This document shows positions 2,970 to 10,171 of a stretch of DNA of 64,000 nt, piece after piece. Source of the DNA: Plantactinospora soyae (lineage in GTDB: Bacteria; Actinomycetota; Actinomycetes; Mycobacteriales; Micromonosporaceae); NCBI RefSeq assembly GCF_014874095.1, contig NZ_JADBEB010000001.1, forward strand, positions 806,001-870,000, in the 5' to 3' direction. A program made the translations under genes and the position numbers. Every line of letters starts with the position of its first letter. Positions within the stretch are counted from its first letter, which is position 1. The notes beneath the pieces were generated by a model, which saw only the letters and a list, made by a program, of their open reading frames with translations, had not been told where the DNA came from and ran no database searches.

Positions 2970-4678
2970 GCCTCCCCCTCCTCGGTCCGGGTGACGACGG
3001 CGGCGTAGCGCGGCTCGGAGTCGAGCAGTTCGCGGTGCCGGCCCTCGGCGACCGCCTTGCCGTCGGAGACGAAGACCACGTGGTCGGCCTGGTCCAGGAC
3101 CAGCGGACTGGTGGTGCAGACCAGGGTGGTCCGGCAGCGCCGGGCCGGACCGAGCCGCCCCGCGATCCGCGCCTCGGTGTGCGCGTCCACCGCGCTGGTC
3201 GGCTCGACCAGGATCAGGATCTCCGGATCCGCCACCAGCGCCCGGACCAGCCGGAGCCGTTGCTGTTGACCACCGGAGAACTCCCGGCCGCGCTCGGCGA
3301 CCCGACCGGCCAGGCCACCGGGCAGCGCCTCGACGATGTCGGTGGCGCTGGCCGCGACCAGCGCCGCCTCGATGGACGCGTCGTCGGCCCGGTCGTGCGG
3401 GTCCAACTCGGTGCGGAGCGGACCGGAGAAGAGCCGCGCGTCGTTGTCGGCCACCATGATCCGGCGCCGGACCGCTTCCAGCGCCAGCTCCCGCAGCGGT
3501 ACGCCGTGCAGCGTCGCCTCGCTGTCGACGTACCGGCCGAGTCGGTCGGCGATGGCGACGGCGTCCTCCGGAGCGGCGGCGGCCAGCGCGGTCAGCCTGC
3601 CCGGCCGCACCGACAGTCCCGACTCCACGTCGACCAGTTCCCCGGCCCCCTCGGGTACCTGCGCGGGCTGGGTCGGTTCGCTGATCTCCGGCCGCAGATT
3701 GAGCATCCCGACCACCCGGCGGGCGGAAACGTGTCCCCGGGTCAGCCGGTCGATCACCTCGGTCAGCATCCGCAACGGGCCGATCAGGAAGACGGTGTAG
3801 CCGTAGAACGAGACGAGCTGCCCGACGGTGATCTCGCCACGCAGCGCGAAGCGGGCGCCGAGCCAGGTCACCAGGACGAGGAAGATGCCGGGCATCAGGA
3901 TCTGGGTGGACTCCAGCAGCGCCTCCACCCTGGCCACCCGTACCCCGCCGTGCCGCAGAGCCTGTGACTCCACCCGGTACCGCGCCGAGAAGACCGCCTC
4001 GCCGCCCACCCCGCGCAGCACTCGCAGCCCGGCGACGATGTCACTGGCCCGGGTGGTGAGGGTCGCCTGCTGGTCCCGGTACGTCTCCTGGCGCCGGTGC
4101 AGCGGTCGGATCAGCATCGCGACGACGGCCATCAGCACCGGTACGCCGAGCACCACCACCAGACCGAGCGGCACCGAGGTGGTCAGCAGGATCGCGGTGA
4201 TGGTGAGTACGGCGAACAGCGACCCGGTACCCCGGGAGAGAATGTCGAGCGCCCCGCCGATGTGGTTGATGTCGGCCGTGCCGATGCTGACCACCTCGCC
4301 GGTGGCAAGCCGCTTCGGCAGCGTCGCGCCGAGCCGGTTGGCCTGGTCGGCGGTGAGCTGGACGGTCCGGTACGCCCCGGCCAGCCAGTTGAAGCTGGCG
4401 AACCGGTGCCGGACGATCCCGACGATCGCCTGGGCGATGCCGAGCGCGAGCAGGAGCAGCCCCCACCGGACCAGCGCGTCGGTGTTCCGGGCGATCAGGC
4501 CGGCATCGATCGCCTTGCCGAGCACGGCCGGCATCAGCGCCTGGCCGACGAAACTGACGATGCCCAGCACCATCCCACCGGCGAGGGTCGGCCAGATCCG
4601 TGCGGCGAGCCAGAGCAGAAACCTGGTCGCCGAACGCTGGTCCGCCACGCCGGGATCGGGGACAGGTAAGGAGCGCAT
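2966..4678 (-). CDS. ABC exporter half with degenerate ATP-binding site
   Basis: A 570-residue ABC exporter half, upstream partner of the gene at 1047-2969. I start it at the ATG at 4678 (MRSLPVPDPG). The frame stays open to 4849, but the extra 57 residues look non-coding and would overlap the previous gene. Six membrane helices lie in about residues 25-300. The ATPase domain lacks a P-loop: the segment ALAAAAPEDAVAIADRLG stands where GxxGxGKST should be. The Walker B Asp is lost (ILILVEPTS) and the H-loop His is replaced (VCTTSPL). The signature FSGGQ (about 467-471) is intact. In a head-to-tail dimer this intact signature would face the partner's intact Walker A, giving one working ATP site. 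Stop and partner start overlap (ATGA). Confidence 0.88.
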   Translation of the reverse strand: MRSLPVPDPGVADQRSATRFLLWLAARIWPTLAGGMVLGIVSFVGQALMPAVLGKAIDAGLIARNTDALVRWGLLLLALGIAQAIVGIVRHRFASFNWLAGAYRTVQLTADQANRLGATLPKRLATGEVVSIGTADINHIGGALDILSRGTGSLFAVLTITAILLTTSVPLGLVVVLGVPVLMAVVAMLIRPLHRRQETYRDQQATLTTRASDIVAGLRVLRGVGGEAVFSARYRVESQALRHGGVRVARVEALLESTQILMPGIFLVLVTWLGARFALRGEITVGQLVSFYGYTVFLIGPLRMLTEVIDRLTRGHVSARRVVGMLNLRPEISEPTQPAQVPEGAGELVDVESGLSVRPGRLTALAAAAPEDAVAIADRLGRYVDSEATLHGVPLRELALEAVRRRIMVADNDARLFSGPLRTELDPHDRADDASIEAALVAASATDIVEALPGGLAGRVAERGREFSGGQQQRLRLVRALVADPEILILVEPTSAVDAHTEARIAGRLGPARRCRTTLVCTTSPLVLDQADHVVFVSDGKAVAEGRHRELLDSEPRYAAVVTRTEEGEA

Positions 4679-4845
4679 CCAGACGACGCTATGGGACCAA
4701 TCGCCACGATCGCCATTGGTTTTCACAGTGCATTTGACTCGGAGTAGCCGGAGTAGCACTTCCCGTGATAGTCCTGTCCTCGCCGTACGCCACAGCCGGC
4801 ACTCGGTCTGATAGCGGCCGGATGTGATCACCGTCGATGACCGGG

Positions 4846-5466
4846 TCACTCCTCTTTGCGCTGCTGGACGTCCGCAGCCGCACTGCGCAGCCAGGCCACC
4901 GCCTCACCTGCCCCTGGGCAGCGCGCCGTCGACACGGCCTCGGCGAGCAGAAGCAGTTGTTCCGGCGGGAGTTCCATCGCCTCGCCGCTGAGGAACCGTA
5001 GTCGCACAGCCGCGCGATCGTCAGACACCAGTAGTGCGGTTACCGGCGGAGCCTTCGCGACCACATCGCTGGCGGGTACCGGGCTGACCTCGCGACGCTG
5101 AAGTTGGCGCATCTCGATCGATCGAGCGTCGGCAAGGTCGACCGTACGGGTGCGCAGCCCCCGTACGGTGAGCCGAGTTCCCTGCAACCAGGCAGCCGCC
5201 CGGACGATGAACGTAGTCAGCAACACCGTCCCAAGCAGCGTCAGTCCGGCCGCAACTCCGGCCAGCGCCAACGGCAGCAGGCCCCACTCGCTGCCGTCGT
5301 CCGCAGGGAAGATCCACAGCGGCAGCTTTCCCAGCCCGAATCCGAGCCCCCCAGCGGCGATCGCGACCACACCACCGAGCAGGAGGGCTTTGACCACCCG
5401 GCCCGCCCTGGCTCCATGGAACCCAACCGACAAGCGACACCTGCTTGTCTCAGCCTGTATCGACAC
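4846..5466 (-). CDS. two-helix membrane protein of unknown function, paralogue A
   Basis: I do not recognise this family. A 206-residue protein from a GTG at 5466. Two hydrophobic segments lie near residues 25-50 and 62-90, followed by a soluble C-terminal domain of about 110 residues. It is a clear paralogue of the proteins at 7477-8076 and 8149-8769. Shared blocks are an N-terminal LSVGF/Y, a juxtamembrane AAWLxGTxLxVR, then RTVDLAxAR, and a C-terminal LPPEQL...ARCPGxxE...WLR. The topology and the short post-helix domain loosely resemble PH-like or YcxB-like membrane proteins, but that is a guess. It is the last gene of a minus-strand run that includes two WXG-like proteins, and the ABC exporter gene follows after 167 bases. 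Confidence 0.75.
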   Translation of the reverse strand: MSIQAETSRCRLSVGFHGARAGRVVKALLLGGVVAIAAGGLGFGLGKLPLWIFPADDGSEWGLLPLALAGVAAGLTLLGTVLLTTFIVRAAAWLQGTRLTVRGLRTRTVDLADARSIEMRQLQRREVSPVPASDVVAKAPPVTALLVSDDRAAVRLRFLSGEAMELPPEQLLLLAEAVSTARCPGAGEAVAWLRSAAADVQQRKEE

Positions 5467-5513
5467 ATGATCGCAGAGGAACGATTGGTGCGCTCTGTCT
5501 GTACGCGAGGCAG

Positions 5514-6302
5514 TCAGTCTGTGCGTACGGACCAGTTACCCGGGGTTTCCATCGTTGGCCACCCGAAGGTGCCGCCGGGCTGCTCGACCATTCCGGTGTT
5601 GTCATTCAACACCTGCGCCAGCGAGGTCATGGTGTTGTCGAACCTCTCGGTGTAGTCCACGAGCGCCACGAGCGCTGCCACGACGAGTCCACCTACAGCA
5701 ACGACGGTACCGCCTGCCATTGGCGGCGCGGCAGGAGCGCCGATCACCGTTGCAGTGGCTCCGGCCGCAGAGACCATGCCAATTACAAAGGTTGCCACCG
5801 CAGCGGCGATGGCTACCCAGAAGGCAACGAGGCCCCAGGCGAGATCGTCCAACGCACTTTGGATCTTCTCGGTGGCTGGGCCGATGGTCTTCAGAGCGTC
5901 GGCCTGCGCGAGGGCCGCATCTCGGTACGAGTCAGCGGCGGTACCACCCCAGCGGCCGTCAGCGTCCAGCTCATTCGGGGATACCTTTTGCTGCAGACCA
6001 CTCACGGGCGCGCCGATCCGGACGTTCCAGTACTCCCCGATGCGCCACAGCGCCGGAGGGAAGCCGGGCTCCTCAACGAGTCGCTGGAGTTCGTCGAATA
6101 GGCGGTCCTTCAGCTCAAGAAACCGTTGCCACTCCCTCTCGATAGCCTCCGTCCCGATGCCCAGAGGTAGCCATCGCATCGCGGCGGTTAGTCCGTCCGC
6201 CAGCTCCACAGTCAATTGCTGGACTCGTTCCAGCCCTTCGCTGACGTTTTGCTGCGATTGCTCGGCGACCTGCTCCAGCCAACTCGCTCCCGCCGCCGTC
6301 AT
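5514..6302 (-). CDS. large WXG/ESX-like protein with two C-terminal membrane helices
   Basis: A 262-residue protein starting at an ATG that overlaps the stop of the preceding gene by four bases. The N-terminal half is predicted helical coiled coil (about 1-95). It is followed by DGRWGGTAADSYRDAAL (about 115-132), which has the W-x-G turn and the Y-x-x-A/D context of WXG100 and longer WXG-type secretion substrates. Two hydrophobic segments, about 155-180 and 195-215, separated by a Pro/Ala loop, then precede a short polar tail. Long WXG proteins with hydrophobic segments are typical partners or substrates of type VII secretion. No ESX core genes (EccB-E, MycP) are in the window. The exact role is unknown. 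Confidence 0.7.
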   Translation of the reverse strand: MTAAGASWLEQVAEQSQQNVSEGLERVQQLTVELADGLTAAMRWLPLGIGTEAIEREWQRFLELKDRLFDELQRLVEEPGFPPALWRIGEYWNVRIGAPVSGLQQKVSPNELDADGRWGGTAADSYRDAALAQADALKTIGPATEKIQSALDDLAWGLVAFWVAIAAAVATFVIGMVSAAGATATVIGAPAAPPMAGGTVVAVGGLVVAALVALVDYTERFDNTMTSLAQVLNDNTGMVEQPGGTFGWPTMETPGNWSVRTD

Positions 6303-6631
6303 TGCTGATCGCCTGCCCTCTCCATACGGACCGATGCCCCCGAATCGGCTCGATCGTAGTTGTCCAGCACAGCTCGAAGCTTTGTCGCCATCACCGTCAT
6401 TGTGACCGCGCCCTCGTTCAACACCCGGACGAAGAAGTCCTGTGCCTCGGTATAACGCTGCCCGACGCCCTGCCTGTTCGGTAGGTATCCAAAATGGAAC
6501 CCCGTGAGGGTCAGCGATGCAGCCTCATGCGCGGCCTTGGTCATAACTTCGGCGGCCTCATACCATGTCGCCGCGTCACTCATGAGCGCCTCGCGCGCCA
6601 TCTTGATCGTTTCCGCATCTGGCTGGGTCAA
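6299..6631 (-). CDS. WXG100/EspC-like small helical protein
   Basis: A 110-residue protein starting at a TTG (6631) with AGGGGA about 8 bases upstream. It is largely helical, with an ATWYEAAEVM segment near residue 21 and a second helix around 55-95, matching the size and two-helix design of WXG100 and EspC-like proteins. A clean W-x-G turn is not obvious; the loop region reads LTLTGFHFGYLP. Its stop overlaps the start of the large WXG protein (6302), so the two are coupled and may form a pair as EsxA/EsxB-type proteins do. The functional assignment rests mostly on size, helix pattern and neighbours. Confidence 0.6.
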   Translation of the reverse strand: MTQPDAETIKMAREALMSDAATWYEAAEVMTKAAHEAASLTLTGFHFGYLPNRQGVGQRYTEAQDFFVRVLNEGAVTMTVMATKLRAVLDNYDRADSGASVRMERAGDQQ

Positions 6632-6686
6632 CTCAGAATCCCCTCTCGACCCTTAGCAAGCGACCGCTCTGGTCACTGCCGGATGA

Positions 6687-7430
6687 TCAACGCGCCATCC
6701 CCAAGCGACGCAGCAAGGCCGCCGGATCCGCAGTAAGCTCGCGCAATTCCACGATGGCCGGCAGACCGGCAAGGCTTGCAGCCTCGTCCTCCGTTTCCTG
6801 GTCGTACGCGTCCTGGCACGCGGCGAGCACCTCGCTGCCGACAGCCGACCCACTGGGCTGCTCCCGTAGCCACCGTTGGCTAATTTCAACCTCGGCGATT
6901 TGGCCACGCTTCACTGCAACGGTCGCCCGATTATCTCGGCCTCGGCCTACCACCTGCTGGCCGCCCCGGGCTTCCAATCGATGGCGATAGCCGTCCACCT
7001 CTGACAGCGCCGCCCTCGTGACCTCGGACGTCCGCAGCAACACCTCGGCCCGACTCTCTCTGCTAGCAGACTCCGCGGAGCGAAGATGGTTCGATCCGTC
7101 ATTGCCTCGCTGCTGGTCCATCGAACTCTGCCAATCTGTCGGCGGATCCCCGCCCTCACGCTCGGCGACGCGCTCCGACCAAATTTTAAGTCGATCGGCA
7201 GCAGCCTGATTCGCGGCATCGAGAACAGCTACCGACAACTGCTCTGGTCCGATCTCCTGCCACCACATGCGACCGATGTCGACCTGCCGCACCTGCCCAG
7301 CATCGTCCAATTCAACCCGCACGGATCCGGATCCATCCGTGCCGACACCGGTCACGCCTGACTGGTCCATCTGCCAAGCGAGTCGCTCGGCGGCCTTCTG
7401 AAGCAAGATGAGGCCGCGTTCGATGTCCAC
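6687..7430 (-). CDS. protein with two YbaB/EbfC-like repeats
   Basis: A 247-residue protein. The frame is open to 7634 but would run through the next gene, so I place the start at the GTG at 7430 (VDIERGLILLQKA), preceded by GGGGGA. The first 100 residues fit the YbaB/EbfC nucleoid-associated fold: an opening helix, then GSVRVELDDAGQVRQVDI and a second helix AVLDAANQAAADRL. After a polar linker (about 105-150) the same pattern recurs: NRATVAVKRGQIAEVEIS followed by VGSEVLAACQDAYDQ. So this looks like two fused YbaB-like units. In actinomycetes YbaB-like genes often sit beside WXG genes, as here. DNA binding is inferred from the family, not shown. Confidence 0.65.
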   Translation of the reverse strand: MDIERGLILLQKAAERLAWQMDQSGVTGVGTDGSGSVRVELDDAGQVRQVDIGRMWWQEIGPEQLSVAVLDAANQAAADRLKIWSERVAEREGGDPPTDWQSSMDQQRGNDGSNHLRSAESASRESRAEVLLRTSEVTRAALSEVDGYRHRLEARGGQQVVGRGRDNRATVAVKRGQIAEVEISQRWLREQPSGSAVGSEVLAACQDAYDQETEDEAASLAGLPAIVELRELTADPAALLRRLGMAR

Positions 7431-7476
7431 AAGTCCCCCATGAAGTCTGGTCTGCGGTACCGATAAACAGAGGATT

Positions 7477-8076
7477 TCAACGAGGCCATGCCGCCATCGC
7501 TCGAAGCCAGGCAATGGTCTCCGCCCCGCCCGGACAGCGCGCAACCGACAGCGCGTTGGCCAGTAGGGACAGCTGCTCCGGGGGCAGCAGCACCCGATCA
7601 CGACTTGCCAAGCGAAGCCGTACCTGGGGGCCATCGGAGGTCACGACGAGCAATGGAACCGCCGGAGATGGTCCCGCCGCACCCGCTGACGCCGGAACAG
7701 CCAGCTGCTCGGCGGTTGATTGGAGCAAGACCGACCGGGCAGCAGCAAGGTCCACCGTATGGACCCGCCGATCCCGGATGATCAGCCGGGTACCTTCCAG
7801 CCAGGCCGCCTGGAACAAGCTTCGGATCCGCCGTGGAATCCAGAACCCCATCAGCCCGGCAAGGACCCAAGCCAGCACAATCGACAGGAACAAAGGCGCT
7901 CCCCCCGAAGCAGAGTCCCCTCCCATCACCTGCACCGCCAACTTTCCGAGGGCTCGCCCACCCCAGACGGCGGCAACCACGACCAACCCGGCGCCCAGCA
8001 GCACGATCACCACTCTGCCGGCGAAGCCCCTCTGGTATCCGACCGATAATCGATATCGATGCCCTGCTGTCTGCAC
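7477..8076 (-). CDS. two-helix membrane protein of unknown function, paralogue B
   Basis: A 199-residue member of the same unrecognised family as the genes at 4846 and 8149. The frame is open to an ATG at 8118. I prefer the GTG at 8076 because the protein then begins VQTAGHRYRLSVGYQ, matching the start of paralogue C, and because everything upstream of 8076 is a copy of the non-coding region upstream of paralogue C. Hydrophobic segments lie near residues 18-45 and 58-80, followed by AAWLEGTRLIIRDRR, HTVDLAAARS, and LPPEQLSLLANALSVARCPG near the end. The YbaB-like gene starts 46 bases after its stop. Confidence 0.72.
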   Translation of the reverse strand: MQTAGHRYRLSVGYQRGFAGRVVIVLLGAGLVVVAAVWGGRALGKLAVQVMGGDSASGGAPLFLSIVLAWVLAGLMGFWIPRRIRSLFQAAWLEGTRLIIRDRRVHTVDLAAARSVLLQSTAEQLAVPASAGAAGPSPAVPLLVVTSDGPQVRLRLASRDRVLLPPEQLSLLANALSVARCPGGAETIAWLRAMAAWPR

Positions 8077-8136
8077 CGGGCCATGATGGCAGACCGGGGC
8101 GACACGTGGGGTGGTCATGATTACGACAGAGGGTCA
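8074..8136. repeat. 63-bp duplicated upstream region, copy 1
   Basis: These 63 bases cover the start codon and leader of paralogue B and match 8767-8829 at about 55 of 63 positions with no gap. Both copies contain GCCATGATGGC, a short inverted repeat just before the start codon. Five of the eight differences fall in one 7-base patch. Confidence 0.85.
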
Positions 8137-8148
8137 AATTTTCGAAGG

Positions 8149-8769
8149 TTAACCTGCCTGGCGGGACAGCACACCTGCCGCTGTGCCCCGAAGCCAGTGC
8201 ACCACCTCGGCCGCGCCCGGGCAGCGTGCGGCCGACAACGCGTCGGCAATCGCCAGCAATTGGTGCGCGGGTAACTGCACCCGCTCGCGGCTGGCCAGCC
8301 GGAGCCGTACGGTTCCACTCTCAGCAGTCACGACCAGCACGGCCACCGACGCCCCCGGACCCGTCAGCACTCCGACAGGTGCCGGCGCACGCAGTCTCTC
8401 GGTGGTCGGTTGCAGCCCCACCAGCCTGGCTGCCGCCAGGTCAACGGTGCGTCGTCGGAGCCTCCGCACAGTCAGCCAGGTGCCATCCAGCCAGGCAGCC
8501 TGCCGCATGGCTGCGGCGAACGCCAGCACCATGTAGAGCGTTGCTGATAGCAGTCCCAACGCCGCGCCGACGAACGGCAGGTAGGCGAACACCGCTGGAG
8601 CTGCTGGAGCGGCCGCGACGGCGTACAGCGCCAGCATCCCGAGGGCGTATCCCCCACACATGGCGCCTACCAGGAGGAAAAGGCCAATGAACAGCAGGCC
8701 GACCAGCCGAGCCGTAAGGCTGGTCTCGAATCCGACTGACAGGTGATATCGACGCATCCCACTTTGCAC
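8149..8769 (-). CDS. two-helix membrane protein of unknown function, paralogue C
   Basis: A 206-residue protein from the GTG at 8769. It is the first gene of the minus-strand accessory cluster and the closest relative of paralogue B. Two hydrophobic segments, about residues 20-50 and 58-90, are followed by AAWLDGTWLTVRRLRRRTVDLAAARL, which I split here as the AAWLDGT block and the RTVDLAAAR block. The C-terminal motif is LPAHQLLAIADALSAARCPG and then VVHWLRG. The upstream 63 bases are shared with paralogue B, so B and C probably arose by tandem duplication together with their leader. Function unknown. Confidence 0.72.
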   Translation of the reverse strand: MQSGMRRYHLSVGFETSLTARLVGLLFIGLFLLVGAMCGGYALGMLALYAVAAAPAAPAVFAYLPFVGAALGLLSATLYMVLAFAAAMRQAAWLDGTWLTVRRLRRRTVDLAAARLVGLQPTTERLRAPAPVGVLTGPGASVAVLVVTAESGTVRLRLASRERVQLPAHQLLAIADALSAARCPGAAEVVHWLRGTAAGVLSRQAG

Positions 8770-8829
8770 CCGGCCATGATGGCAGACCGGGCCGACACGT
8801 AGGGTGGTCGAGGATGCGACAGAGGGTCA
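8767..8829. repeat. 63-bp duplicated upstream region, copy 2
   Basis: Partner of 8074-8136. It spans the leader of paralogue C and ends exactly on the stop codon of the next gene upstream (8827-8829). The duplicated unit therefore began at or inside the end of that gene. Confidence 0.85.
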
Positions 8830-9090
8830 GCGGTCGACCTGGGTGAAGTCCCATACGTGCGGGGTCCGGGCGAGCATCCGGGCCGGCGGATCGGGCAAGG
8901 AGACCGGGTCGCCACGCCACTTGGAGATGACCACGAGCCGGTTGTCGGTCGAGGAGAAGACCTCGCTGGAGATGTGCAGCGGATTGTGCTCCAGATCGGG
9001 CAGTGCCGTGTCACAGACCCACGAGATGAGGTCGGCGAACCCGGCCCGCTCGGCGCGTACTTCCCACATCCGTACGATCACGTCGGTCAC
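8827..9090 (-). CDS. small ABM/Dabb-like protein
   Basis: An 87-residue protein. I start it at a GTG at 9090 (VTDVIVRMWEVRAE), just after GGGAGGAG; the adjacent GTG at 9093 is equally possible. The pattern of a first strand with VRMWEVRAERAGF, a helix, then VFSSTDNRLVVISKW fits the small alpha/beta-barrel half of antibiotic-biosynthesis-monooxygenase-like and stress-responsive dimeric proteins, where the middle strand carries the aromatic residues. No catalytic residue can be assigned. It follows tsaD after 34 bases on the same strand and may be the tail of that operon. Confidence 0.65.
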   Translation of the reverse strand: MTDVIVRMWEVRAERAGFADLISWVCDTALPDLEHNPLHISSEVFSSTDNRLVVISKWRGDPVSLPDPPARMLARTPHVWDFTQVDR

Positions 9091-9124
9091 CACTCCTCCC
9101 GCCGCCCCCGATGCCGCCGGAACA

Positions 9125-10171
9125 CTACACGCTGACGATCGTGAGCGGCATCGCGGAATCGGCGGGCAGGTCCAGCCGACTCGGTGCCACTCCGGCGGCG
9201 ACCAGGTGCGAGCCGAGTGCGGCGACCATCGCCCCGTTGTCAGTGCAGAGTTTCGGACGGGGCACCCGGACCCGGATGCCGTACTTCGCCGCCCGCTGCT
9301 CGGCCAGCACCCGTAGGCGGGAGTTCGCCGCCACGCCGCCGCCGAGTACCAGCGTATCGACGCCACGGTCCCGGCAGGCCGCGATGGCCTTGCTGGTCAG
9401 CACGTCGCAGACCGCCTCCTGGAACGACGCGGCCACGTCCGGCACCGGCACCGGTTCGCCGGCGCGTTGCTTCGCCTCCACCCACCTCGCCACCGCAGTT
9501 TTGAGACCGGAGAAGGAGAAGTCGAACCGGTGCGCGGCGAGGTCCTTCGGCGCGGTCAGGCCGCGCGGGAACGGGATGGCGTCCGCCGTACCGGCCCGCG
9601 CCTCCCGGTCGATCGGCGGCCCGCCCGGGAAGGGCAGCCCGAGCAGCCGGGCCACCTTGTCGAACGCCTCGCCGGCCGCGTCGTCGATGGTGGCACCCAG
9701 CGGGGTGACCCCGGTGGCGAGATTGTCCACCAGCAGCAGCGAGGAGTGCCCGCCGGAGACCAGCAGCGCGATCGCCGGCTCGGGCAGCGGCCCGTGCTCC
9801 AGGGTGTCCACCGCGACGTGCGCGGCGAGATGGTTCACTCCGTAGACCGGCTTGTCGGCGGCCAGCGCGTACCCCTTGGCGGCGGCCACTCCGACCAGCA
9901 GCGCGCCGGCCAGGCCGGGGCCGGCGGTCACCGCGATCGCGTCGATGTCGGCCAGGGTCACCCCCGCGTCGTCGAGCGCGCGGCGCATGGTCGGCACGAT
10001 GGCTTCCAGGTGGGCCCGGCTGGCCACCTCCGGCACCACCCCGCCGAACCGGGCGTGTTCCTCCACACTGGACGCGATGGCGTCGGCGAGCAGGGTGTGT
10101 CCCCGGACGATCCCGACACCGGTCTCGTCGCAGGACGTCTCGATCCCGAGGATCAGCGGTTCGTCAGCCAT
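9125..10171 (-). CDS. tsaD: tRNA N6-adenosine threonylcarbamoyltransferase TsaD
   Basis: A 348-residue protein of the Kae1/TsaD/Qri7 family, normal length for the bacterial enzyme. It moves the threonylcarbamoyl group onto A37 of ANN-decoding tRNAs, working with TsaB and TsaE, both encoded nearby. The sequence opens [17 protein letters not shown], the family hallmark. The metal-binding His pair is in [10 protein letters not shown] (about 112-121), the nucleotide-binding segment is [13 protein letters not shown], and [11 protein letters not shown] lies near 270. The start overlaps the end of rimI by 8 bases. No truncation or missing key residue is seen. Confidence 0.97.

What the first reader, a model, noticed from the sequence alone, without database searches (positions are those of the whole stretch)
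4846..8769. Uncharacterised cluster: three paralogous two-helix membrane proteins with WXG and YbaB-like partners
Six minus-strand genes with short gaps or overlaps form one unit. Three encode members of a family I cannot name, with shared blocks LSVGF/Y, AAWLxGT, RTVDLAxAR and ARCPGxxE...WLR. Between them lie two WXG-type proteins and a double YbaB-like protein. No ESX core genes are present. The set looks like a self-contained membrane system that uses WXG proteins without its own secretion machine. It also appears less GC-rich than its surroundings.
Basis: partly seen in the sequence, partly recalled or inferred. Interest (0 to 1): 0.75.

Follow-up and report, generated by a model that had tools for sequence, protein, structure and literature searches.

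The report
Swappable orphan type VII substrate cassette
A small, apparently exchanged gene cassette in soil actinobacteria seems to encode a paired protein cargo for a type VII secretion machine located elsewhere in the genome, a helper that escorts it, and membrane proteins matched to it; what the cargo does is still untested.

Summary
The six genes are real (window 4846-8769, minus strand, Micromonosporaceae genome G000). The core is not the three membrane paralogues but a three-gene unit: a double YbaB-like protein (Y), a 110-aa EspC-like protein (s) and a 262-aa WxG protein with two hydrophobic helices (L). Y-s-L lie in this order in 43 of 51 L loci examined. s carries YxxxD/E in 31 of 33 rows and L carries WxG in 31 of 33; the same two loci lack both. 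This resembles mycobacterial EspD/H-EspC/F-EspA/E modules, whose YbaB-like members are proposed chaperones. EccB and EccCa genes lie elsewhere in G000. The paralogues (A) form a family seen here only in Micromonosporaceae; 35 of 41 fetched A loci lack Y-s-L, but all 8 genomes with a close L have A beside it. Many other L loci have unrelated small membrane proteins instead. The cassette looks exchanged as a block: flanking dS 0.15-0.18 to a sister species, cassette dS 1.3 to saturated; one congener has an empty site. Best reading: exchangeable orphan ESX substrate cassette with a cognate membrane partner. Secretion and activity are untested.

The parts
8149..8769 (-). Paralogue A: 206-aa membrane protein, N-terminal helical hairpin plus a C-terminal domain predicted cytosolic; GTG start directly behind a conserved upstream element
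   Evidence: no family over cut-off
7477..8076 (-). Paralogue B: 199 aa, same family; groups with the first A copy of P. alkalitolerans (SH-aLRT 98)
6687..7430 (-). Y: double YbaB-like protein, proposed chaperone of the s-L pair
   Evidence: PF02575, two stretches, above cut-off; next to s-L in 43 of 51 L loci
6299..6631 (-). s: 110-aa EspC-like small partner with YxxxD (Y92, D96); TTG start assumed, ATG at 6601 possible
5514..6302 (-). L: 262-aa WxG partner (W118, G120), WXG100-like stretch about residues 91-165, two hydrophobic helices about 159-177 and 197-215, conserved WP in the tail (W248, P249)
4846..5466 (-). Paralogue C: 206 aa, same family, downstream of L; groups with the A genes that lie directly upstream of Y in congeners (set of four rows, SH-aLRT 97)
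8770..8825 (-). Conserved upstream element of A (TCTGTCG N7 GACCACCCNACGTGTCG ... CATCAT) ending at the GTG start
8077..8135 (-). Second copy of the upstream element, ahead of B; the 31-base core occurs only twice in the 9.7-Mb genome
4735..8826 (.). Approximate extent of the inserted cassette, by comparison with the empty site of G032

Best explanation
The cluster is an orphan, exchangeable substrate cassette for an ESX (actinobacterial type VII) secretion machine encoded elsewhere in the genome. s and L form a heterodimer whose bipartite export signal is split between them (YxxxD/E on s, WxG on L). Y is a YbaB-type cytosolic chaperone that keeps the pair stable and export-competent. L ends in a hydrophobic helical hairpin that would insert into a membrane after export. 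A, B and C are inner-membrane partners matched to this L clade. Their most likely job is to protect the producer from, or hold and place, L at the membrane; other L clades have different small membrane proteins that may do this. Shown here: gene order, motifs, family similarity, co-inheritance, cassette divergence far above its flanks, an empty site, and ESX components elsewhere. Inferred: heterodimer, chaperoning, secretion, membrane insertion, exchange by recombination, and the role of A.
For: Y-s-L on one strand in this order in 43 of 51 L loci, s-L in 48 of 51 (L037 and L041 are the same locus, and in L040 a transposase-like gene lies between Y and s). YxxxD/E in 31 of 33 s rows, WxG in 31 of 33 L rows; loci L117 and L118 lack both. 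Members match EspC in 18 of 33 (best 1.4e-5), and WXG100 in 29 of 33 (1.7e-6) and EspA_EspE in 19 of 33 (4.3e-5), all counted at E up to 0.1. Y is over the YbaB cut-off. A subtilase follows Y-s-L in L170. EccB in 7 of 7 cassette genomes; two EccCa over cut-off in G000. Membrane-partner type follows the L tree: 9 changes against a minimum of 8, shuffled mean 24.5, 0 of 200 as low. YbaB-like EspH binds EspE and is needed for EspE/EspF secretion (PMC6107294, passages); EspL stabilises EspE, EspF and EspH (PMC6319747, passages). Exchange and empty site.
Against: The window's own s matches no Pfam or NCBIfam family, and the window's L is below the EspA_EspE and WXG100 cut-offs (15.8 against 27 bits; 11.4 against 27.3). 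ESX presence does not discriminate: EccB is in 352 of 354 family genomes, and one of the 110 genomes with an L match, G038 (L at 1.5e-11, 780 contigs), has none. Vertical inheritance of the operon alone could make partner types follow the L tree, and 20 of its 46 rows had no assigned partner. The best PDB matches of the s and L profiles are coiled coils, not ESX proteins. The L structure model is poor (pLDDT 44.9). There is no expression or secretion evidence.
Confidence: 0.68

Rival explanations
1. Antagonism module: L is a membrane-active toxin delivered by ESX to neighbouring bacteria, and A, B, C (or other small membrane proteins in other clades) are immunity proteins, as TsaI is for TspA and ExiCD for EsxX in staphylococci.
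For: Hydrophobic helices in L (2 or more predicted in 31 of 33 rows); one to three tandem, diverged membrane paralogues beside the substrate; partner types follow the L clade; copies of A without any L nearby; cassette far more diverged than its flanks. PMC7456083 (passages) and PMC12744356 (abstract) show the scheme in Staphylococcus.
Against: No glycine-zipper enrichment: GxxxG 15 observed against 21 in shuffles. The C-terminal tail of L is conserved (W248, P249 invariant in 33 rows), unlike a polymorphic toxin tip. Many standalone A genes have repeated neighbourhoods across genomes, which looks like a housekeeping role. A carries a predicted cytosolic domain that a simple membrane immunity protein would not need.
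Confidence: 0.3
2. Envelope-building module: s-L is exported and stays in the producer's own envelope as a structural or secretion-accessory part, with A and its counterparts as dedicated membrane receptors.
For: Conserved tail of L; A has a cytosolic C-terminal domain by charge bias in 38 of 38 two-helix rows, the side where Y-s-L would be; the reference list of PMC6107294 names a paper on EspC filaments in the mycobacterial envelope (title only).
Against: Presence or absence within one genus and the large divergence do not suit a core envelope part; Micromonosporaceae have no mycomembrane (recalled).
Confidence: 0.25
3. Not a secretion cassette: Y acts as a nucleoid or regulatory DNA-binding protein and L is an ordinary membrane protein.
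For: The Pfam family of Y is named for DNA binding; L has predicted hydrophobic helices; the best PDB matches of s and L profiles are coiled coils.
Against: Paired YxxxD/E and WxG signals, absent together in the same two loci; EspC, EspA/E and WXG100 similarity; close linkage of the three genes.
Confidence: 0.07

Closest known systems
EspACD / EspEFH modules of mycobacterial ESX-1 (YbaB-like EspD, EspH, EspL)
   Same: Small YxxxD/E partner, large WxG partner, YbaB-like chaperone. espACD is also encoded away from the ESX-1 cluster, more than 260 kb (PMC6107294, passages).
   Different: Here Y is a double YbaB protein, L has a C-terminal hydrophobic hairpin, and a clade-specific membrane protein is attached. 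Host family is Micromonosporaceae. Sequence similarity to the Esp Pfam families is weak.
TspA-TsaI and EsxX-ExiCD (T7SSb membrane-depolarising toxins and membrane immunity proteins, Staphylococcus)
   Same: T7SS-type substrate with a hydrophobic part beside membrane proteins, in tandem for TspA; copies of the membrane proteins without the substrate.
   Different: No LXG match seen, no glycine zipper, conserved rather than polymorphic C terminus; different phylum and machine.
PE/PPE-EspG substrates of mycobacteria
   Same: Heterodimeric ESX substrates with a dedicated cytosolic chaperone.
   Different: Chaperone is YbaB-like, not EspG; only single weak matches to PE-type families (PE 1 of 33 at 0.055, EspB_PE 1 of 33 at 0.096; EspB_PPE 1 of 33 L rows at 0.049).

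Membership tests
Esp-type ESX substrate module (EspACD/EspEFH-like) | Small EspC/F-like protein with YxxxD/E | tested here: met
   Motif in 31 of 33 rows including the window; EspC Pfam 18 of 33 at E up to 0.1, best 1.4e-5, but not the window member; NCBIfam WXG100_ESAT6 7 of 33
Esp-type ESX substrate module (EspACD/EspEFH-like) | Large partner with WxG in an EspA/EspE or WXG100 domain | tested here: inconclusive
   WxG in 31 of 33; EspA_EspE 19 of 33 and WXG100 29 of 33 at E up to 0.1; window member below both cut-offs
Esp-type ESX substrate module (EspACD/EspEFH-like) | YbaB-like partner | tested here: met
   PF02575 33.6 bits against 25.5, two stretches
Esp-type ESX substrate module (EspACD/EspEFH-like) | ESX machine present in the genome | tested here: met
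   Two EccB and two EccCa over cut-off in G000; other core genes not searched by profile; not discriminating, EccB 352 of 354 in the family
Esp-type ESX substrate module (EspACD/EspEFH-like) | ESX-dependent, co-dependent secretion of the pair | not testable with these tools
   Needs an experiment
T7SSb LXG membrane-depolarising toxin (TspA/EsxX) | LXG domain | tested here: not met
   No LXG family among the Pfam matches shown for 33 L rows (first 25 of 29 families shown) nor for the window L
T7SSb LXG membrane-depolarising toxin (TspA/EsxX) | Glycine zipper in the hydrophobic part (EsxX) | tested here: not met
   GxxxG 15 observed, shuffled mean 21.0; GxxxGxxxG 0 observed, shuffled mean 1.7
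T7SSb LXG membrane-depolarising toxin (TspA/EsxX) | Membrane-depolarising activity relieved by the membrane partner | not testable with these tools
   Needs an experiment
Bacterial PH-domain membrane proteins (bPH_6), considered for A/B/C | Profile similarity to bPH_6 | tested here: not met
   hhalign of A5 against three of the four bPH_6 proteins of the own genome: probability 0.7%; no bPH Pfam match among 40 members at E up to 1

The most novel reading that the evidence does not exclude
A family of ESX-delivered, membrane-inserting effectors of non-mycobacterial actinobacteria. Each L clade has its own unrelated inner-membrane immunity or docking protein, a YbaB chaperone and a split secretion signal. 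The modules are exchanged as blocks at chromosomal hot spots, making the little-studied ESX systems of Micromonosporaceae weapons or signalling devices between cells.
Probability: 0.3. Interest if true: 0.75.

Novelty: new variant of a known kind. Interest (0 to 1): 0.5.

Why it matters
The ESX component EccB is nearly universal in Micromonosporaceae (352 of 354 genomes). I found little in print on their cargo: two papers in the held library contain both 'type VII secretion' and 'Micromonosporaceae', one of which lists fifteen T7SS genes of Micromonospora lupini (PMC4182475, passages). This cassette family gives concrete, testable candidate substrates, a predicted chaperone and a candidate membrane partner. 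It also suggests that the YbaB-chaperone plus split-signal design of mycobacterial Esp modules exists in soil bacteria. Block exchange at one locus hints at a role under diversifying pressure.

Tried and rejected
PH-domain idea for A/B/C: suggested by eye from the strand pattern, tested against bPH_6 proteins of the same genome and not supported. The AlphaFold model of A (6 sequences, pLDDT 59) shows a helical hairpin and a poorly predicted alpha/beta part; Foldseek gave no match at E 0.001 or better. The L model is too poor to use (2 sequences, pLDDT 44.9).

Mobile-element origin: no L match in plasmids or phages (window L as query), and no L or A relative in viral contigs.

Recent foreign origin from low GC3 alone: GC3 is also low in the congeners' cassettes (L037, L039, L040), only slightly low in L049 and L050, and not in L116 (L058 had too few neighbours). 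So low GC3 is kept in this genus rather than fresh.

Top PDB matches of the L profile fall in its N-terminal half (spike HR1 chimeras and designed bundles, best 4e-8), and those of the s profile are designed coiled coils (best 4.5e-4). I take these as heptad similarity. ESX-type chains come lower: 0.014-0.061 for L (that 3gvm and 3o9o are WXG100 proteins is recalled), 0.03-0.45 for s.

A regulon of the upstream element: the core pattern has only its two cassette copies in G000. One search used a wrong spacer (8 instead of 7) and is void.

EccB as a test of ESX dependence: uninformative because it is near universal.
Full report
What is there. The window is G000:C1:806001-870000 of a single-contig 9.7-Mb genome. 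A close named relative is Plantactinospora alkalitolerans (L037); its contig has the same length and content as G104:C73, and G104 is listed as the same genus as G000. Six minus-strand genes lie at 4846-8769: A, B, Y, s, L and C. A, B and C are one family. Only Y passes a curated cut-off (YbaB). GC is 0.63-0.67 per kb in the cluster against about 0.69-0.75 around it, and GC3 of the six genes is 0.70-0.76 against 0.911 (sd 0.033) for 40 other genes of the window chosen by my gene caller, which favours high GC3.

Which genes belong together. A profile of A/B/C matches 92 of 300 Micromonosporaceae genomes at E 0.001. In a phylum-wide sample of 296 genomes the wider A profile matches only G000 and G003, both Micromonosporaceae. 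I fetched 40 of the places found (strong and weak ones) besides the two loci. Of these 42 loci (41 distinct; L037 and L041 are the same), 35 of 41 show no Y, s or L in the 12-18 kb fetched. Standalone A genes recur in several repeated neighbourhoods. The reverse search tells another story. L matches 110 of 354 Micromonosporaceae genomes and, outside the family, 4 genomes in a phylum sample of 396, three of them weak. I examined 51 L loci: 43 have Y-s-L in this order on one strand and 48 have s-L. The eight without a labelled Y ahead of s are L134, L138 (a YbaB protein lies after L instead), L144, L160, L161, L162, L168 (contig end) and L169. All 8 genomes with an L match better than E 1e-70 have A next to the cassette.

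Membrane partner. Where A is missing, a short gene for a protein of 3-5 predicted helices often follows L directly. The 18 found fall into 7 groups that do not match each other by phmmer at E 0.001. In a few other loci (L135, L145, L165, L166, L167) a 3-4-helix protein lies ahead of Y instead; these were not given a partner label. Partner type follows the L tree of 46 rows (partial, duplicate and weak L rows left out): 9 groups, 'none' included, need 9 changes (minimum 8), shuffled mean 24.5, 0 of 200 as low; the 7 A-type L rows are one side of a branch with SH-aLRT 85, but the X2 group has only 27. 20 rows had no assigned partner, and joint vertical descent would also give this pattern. In the A tree the 11 cassette rows sit in a set of 14 with three standalone rows. 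C of the window groups with the copies that lie directly upstream of Y in congeners, so position has shifted while linkage stayed.

Secretion signals. In 33 s rows (34 listed; the ESX-locus protein of L137 was left out) the YxxxD/E motif stands in 31. In 33 L rows WxG stands in 31. The exceptions are the same two loci, L117 and L118, which are close relatives. EspC is matched by 18 of 33 s members (best 1.4e-5), NCBIfam WXG100_ESAT6 by 7 of 33, and WXG100 by 29 and EspA_EspE by 19 of 33 L members, at E up to 0.1; the window members are weak or absent. The s profile aligns its C-terminal part with EspB and PE25 chains in the PDB at E 0.03-0.45, and the L profile aligns positions 89-167 with three WXG100-type chains at E 0.014-0.061; in both searches coiled coils score better. 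L170 has a subtilase (PF00082, 1.8e-23) directly after L, which I read as mycosin-like.

ESX machines. G000 has two EccB and two EccCa over cut-off, all outside the window; EccD, EccE and mycosin were not searched by profile. EccB is in 7 of 7 cassette genomes but also in 352 of 354 family genomes, and one of the 110 L-positive genomes (G038) has none, so this fits the model without testing it.

Known parallel. In mycobacteria YbaB-like EspH binds EspE and is needed for EspE/EspF secretion, EspD stabilises EspA/EspC, and espACD lies more than 260 kb from the ESX-1 cluster (PMC6107294, passages read). EspL stabilises EspE, EspF and EspH (PMC6319747, passages read). A cassette without its own machine is therefore not strange.

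Topology and mechanism. The hydropathy scan finds two helices in 38 of 40 A rows (the window's A gives four segments). In all 38 the basic-residue share is higher after the second helix than in the loop, so the C-terminal domain is predicted cytosolic. L has a WXG100-like stretch, two hydrophobic helices and an invariant WP in its tail. I infer a chaperoned s-L heterodimer exported by an ESX machine, with L engaging a membrane and A as its cognate partner. Whether A protects or docks is open: immunity is favoured by tandem diverged copies and exchange, docking by the cytosolic domain and conserved L tail. The staphylococcal TspA and EsxX systems (PMC7456083 passages; PMC12744356 abstract) show how such a toxin module works, but LXG and glycine-zipper features are not met.

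An exchanged island. Between the window and L037, tsaD, the 88-aa gene and the first ABC gene have dS 0.15-0.18 and 93-99% protein identity, whereas Y, s, L, B and C have dS 1.3 to saturated and 49-59% identity. Between the window and L039 flanks have dS 0.30-0.38, cassette genes 1.25-1.73. L039 against L040 shows 0.40-0.53 (Y, s, A) against 0.21-0.24. The simplest reading is that the cassette has been replaced by divergent alleles; much faster evolution in place is not strictly excluded. In G032 the site is empty; in G058 about 3 kb of unrelated coding sequence lies there; in G078 the ABC genes are not within the stretch fetched, so its site cannot be judged. The empty-site comparison puts the insert at about 4735-8826. 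In L040 a transposase-like gene lies between Y and s and L is in two frames, so the cassette decays in some strains.

Upstream element. A and B, and their congener copies, share about 70 bases upstream that are 71-94% identical in 15 pairs while the first 180 coding bases are 47-59% identical (except L039-L040, 83 against 89%). The 31-base core occurs only twice in G000. A CATCAT hexamer 7-12 bases before GTG suggests leaderless transcripts (my reading, untested).

Names such as tsaD, ABC transporter, monooxygenase, transposase, HtpX, SmpB and FtsX are recalled from the sequences and come from no call. Literature: (listings, 'polymorphic toxin' with 'YbaB', found none), plus the passages and abstract named. 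No paper on this cassette appeared in those searches, which does not prove that none exists.

Noticed in passing
L188 (G058:C44), about 3837-6488: At the same tsaD-ABC site a congener carries an unrelated 884-residue frame that looks Hsp70-like with WD40-like repeats (by eye), so the site may be a hot spot for accessory genes.
   Followed up: partly
L040, 5772-8687: Decaying cassette: transposase-like gene between Y and s, L split over two frames.
   Followed up: partly
L138 (G000:C1:3742000-3760000), 7838-9592: A second, distant L-like gene in the same genome followed by a single YbaB protein (PF02575, 3.5e-11) and a 188-aa two-helix protein with no Pfam match at E 0.1: a possible third partner type.
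   Followed up: partly
L143, 7465-11128: Tandem duplication of L together with its 4-helix partner gene.
   Followed up: no
L121, 7482-7961: The 4-helix partner of one L clade has a weak match to Pfam Rv2743c (E 0.0041, below the cut-off).
   Followed up: no
L061, L064-L068, L070, L071, L074, L076: Standalone A-family gene in a repeated neighbourhood next to genes that look like ftsX and smpB (by eye); no WXG or YbaB gene near. Function unknown.
   Followed up: no
L170, 405-3566: Y-s-L directly followed by a subtilase on a 7.5-kb contig: a possible direct link of the family to an ESX locus.
   Followed up: partly
L049, 5977-7583: Four small genes of unknown kind upstream of the cassette in one Micromonosporaceae genome (G107).
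   Followed up: no
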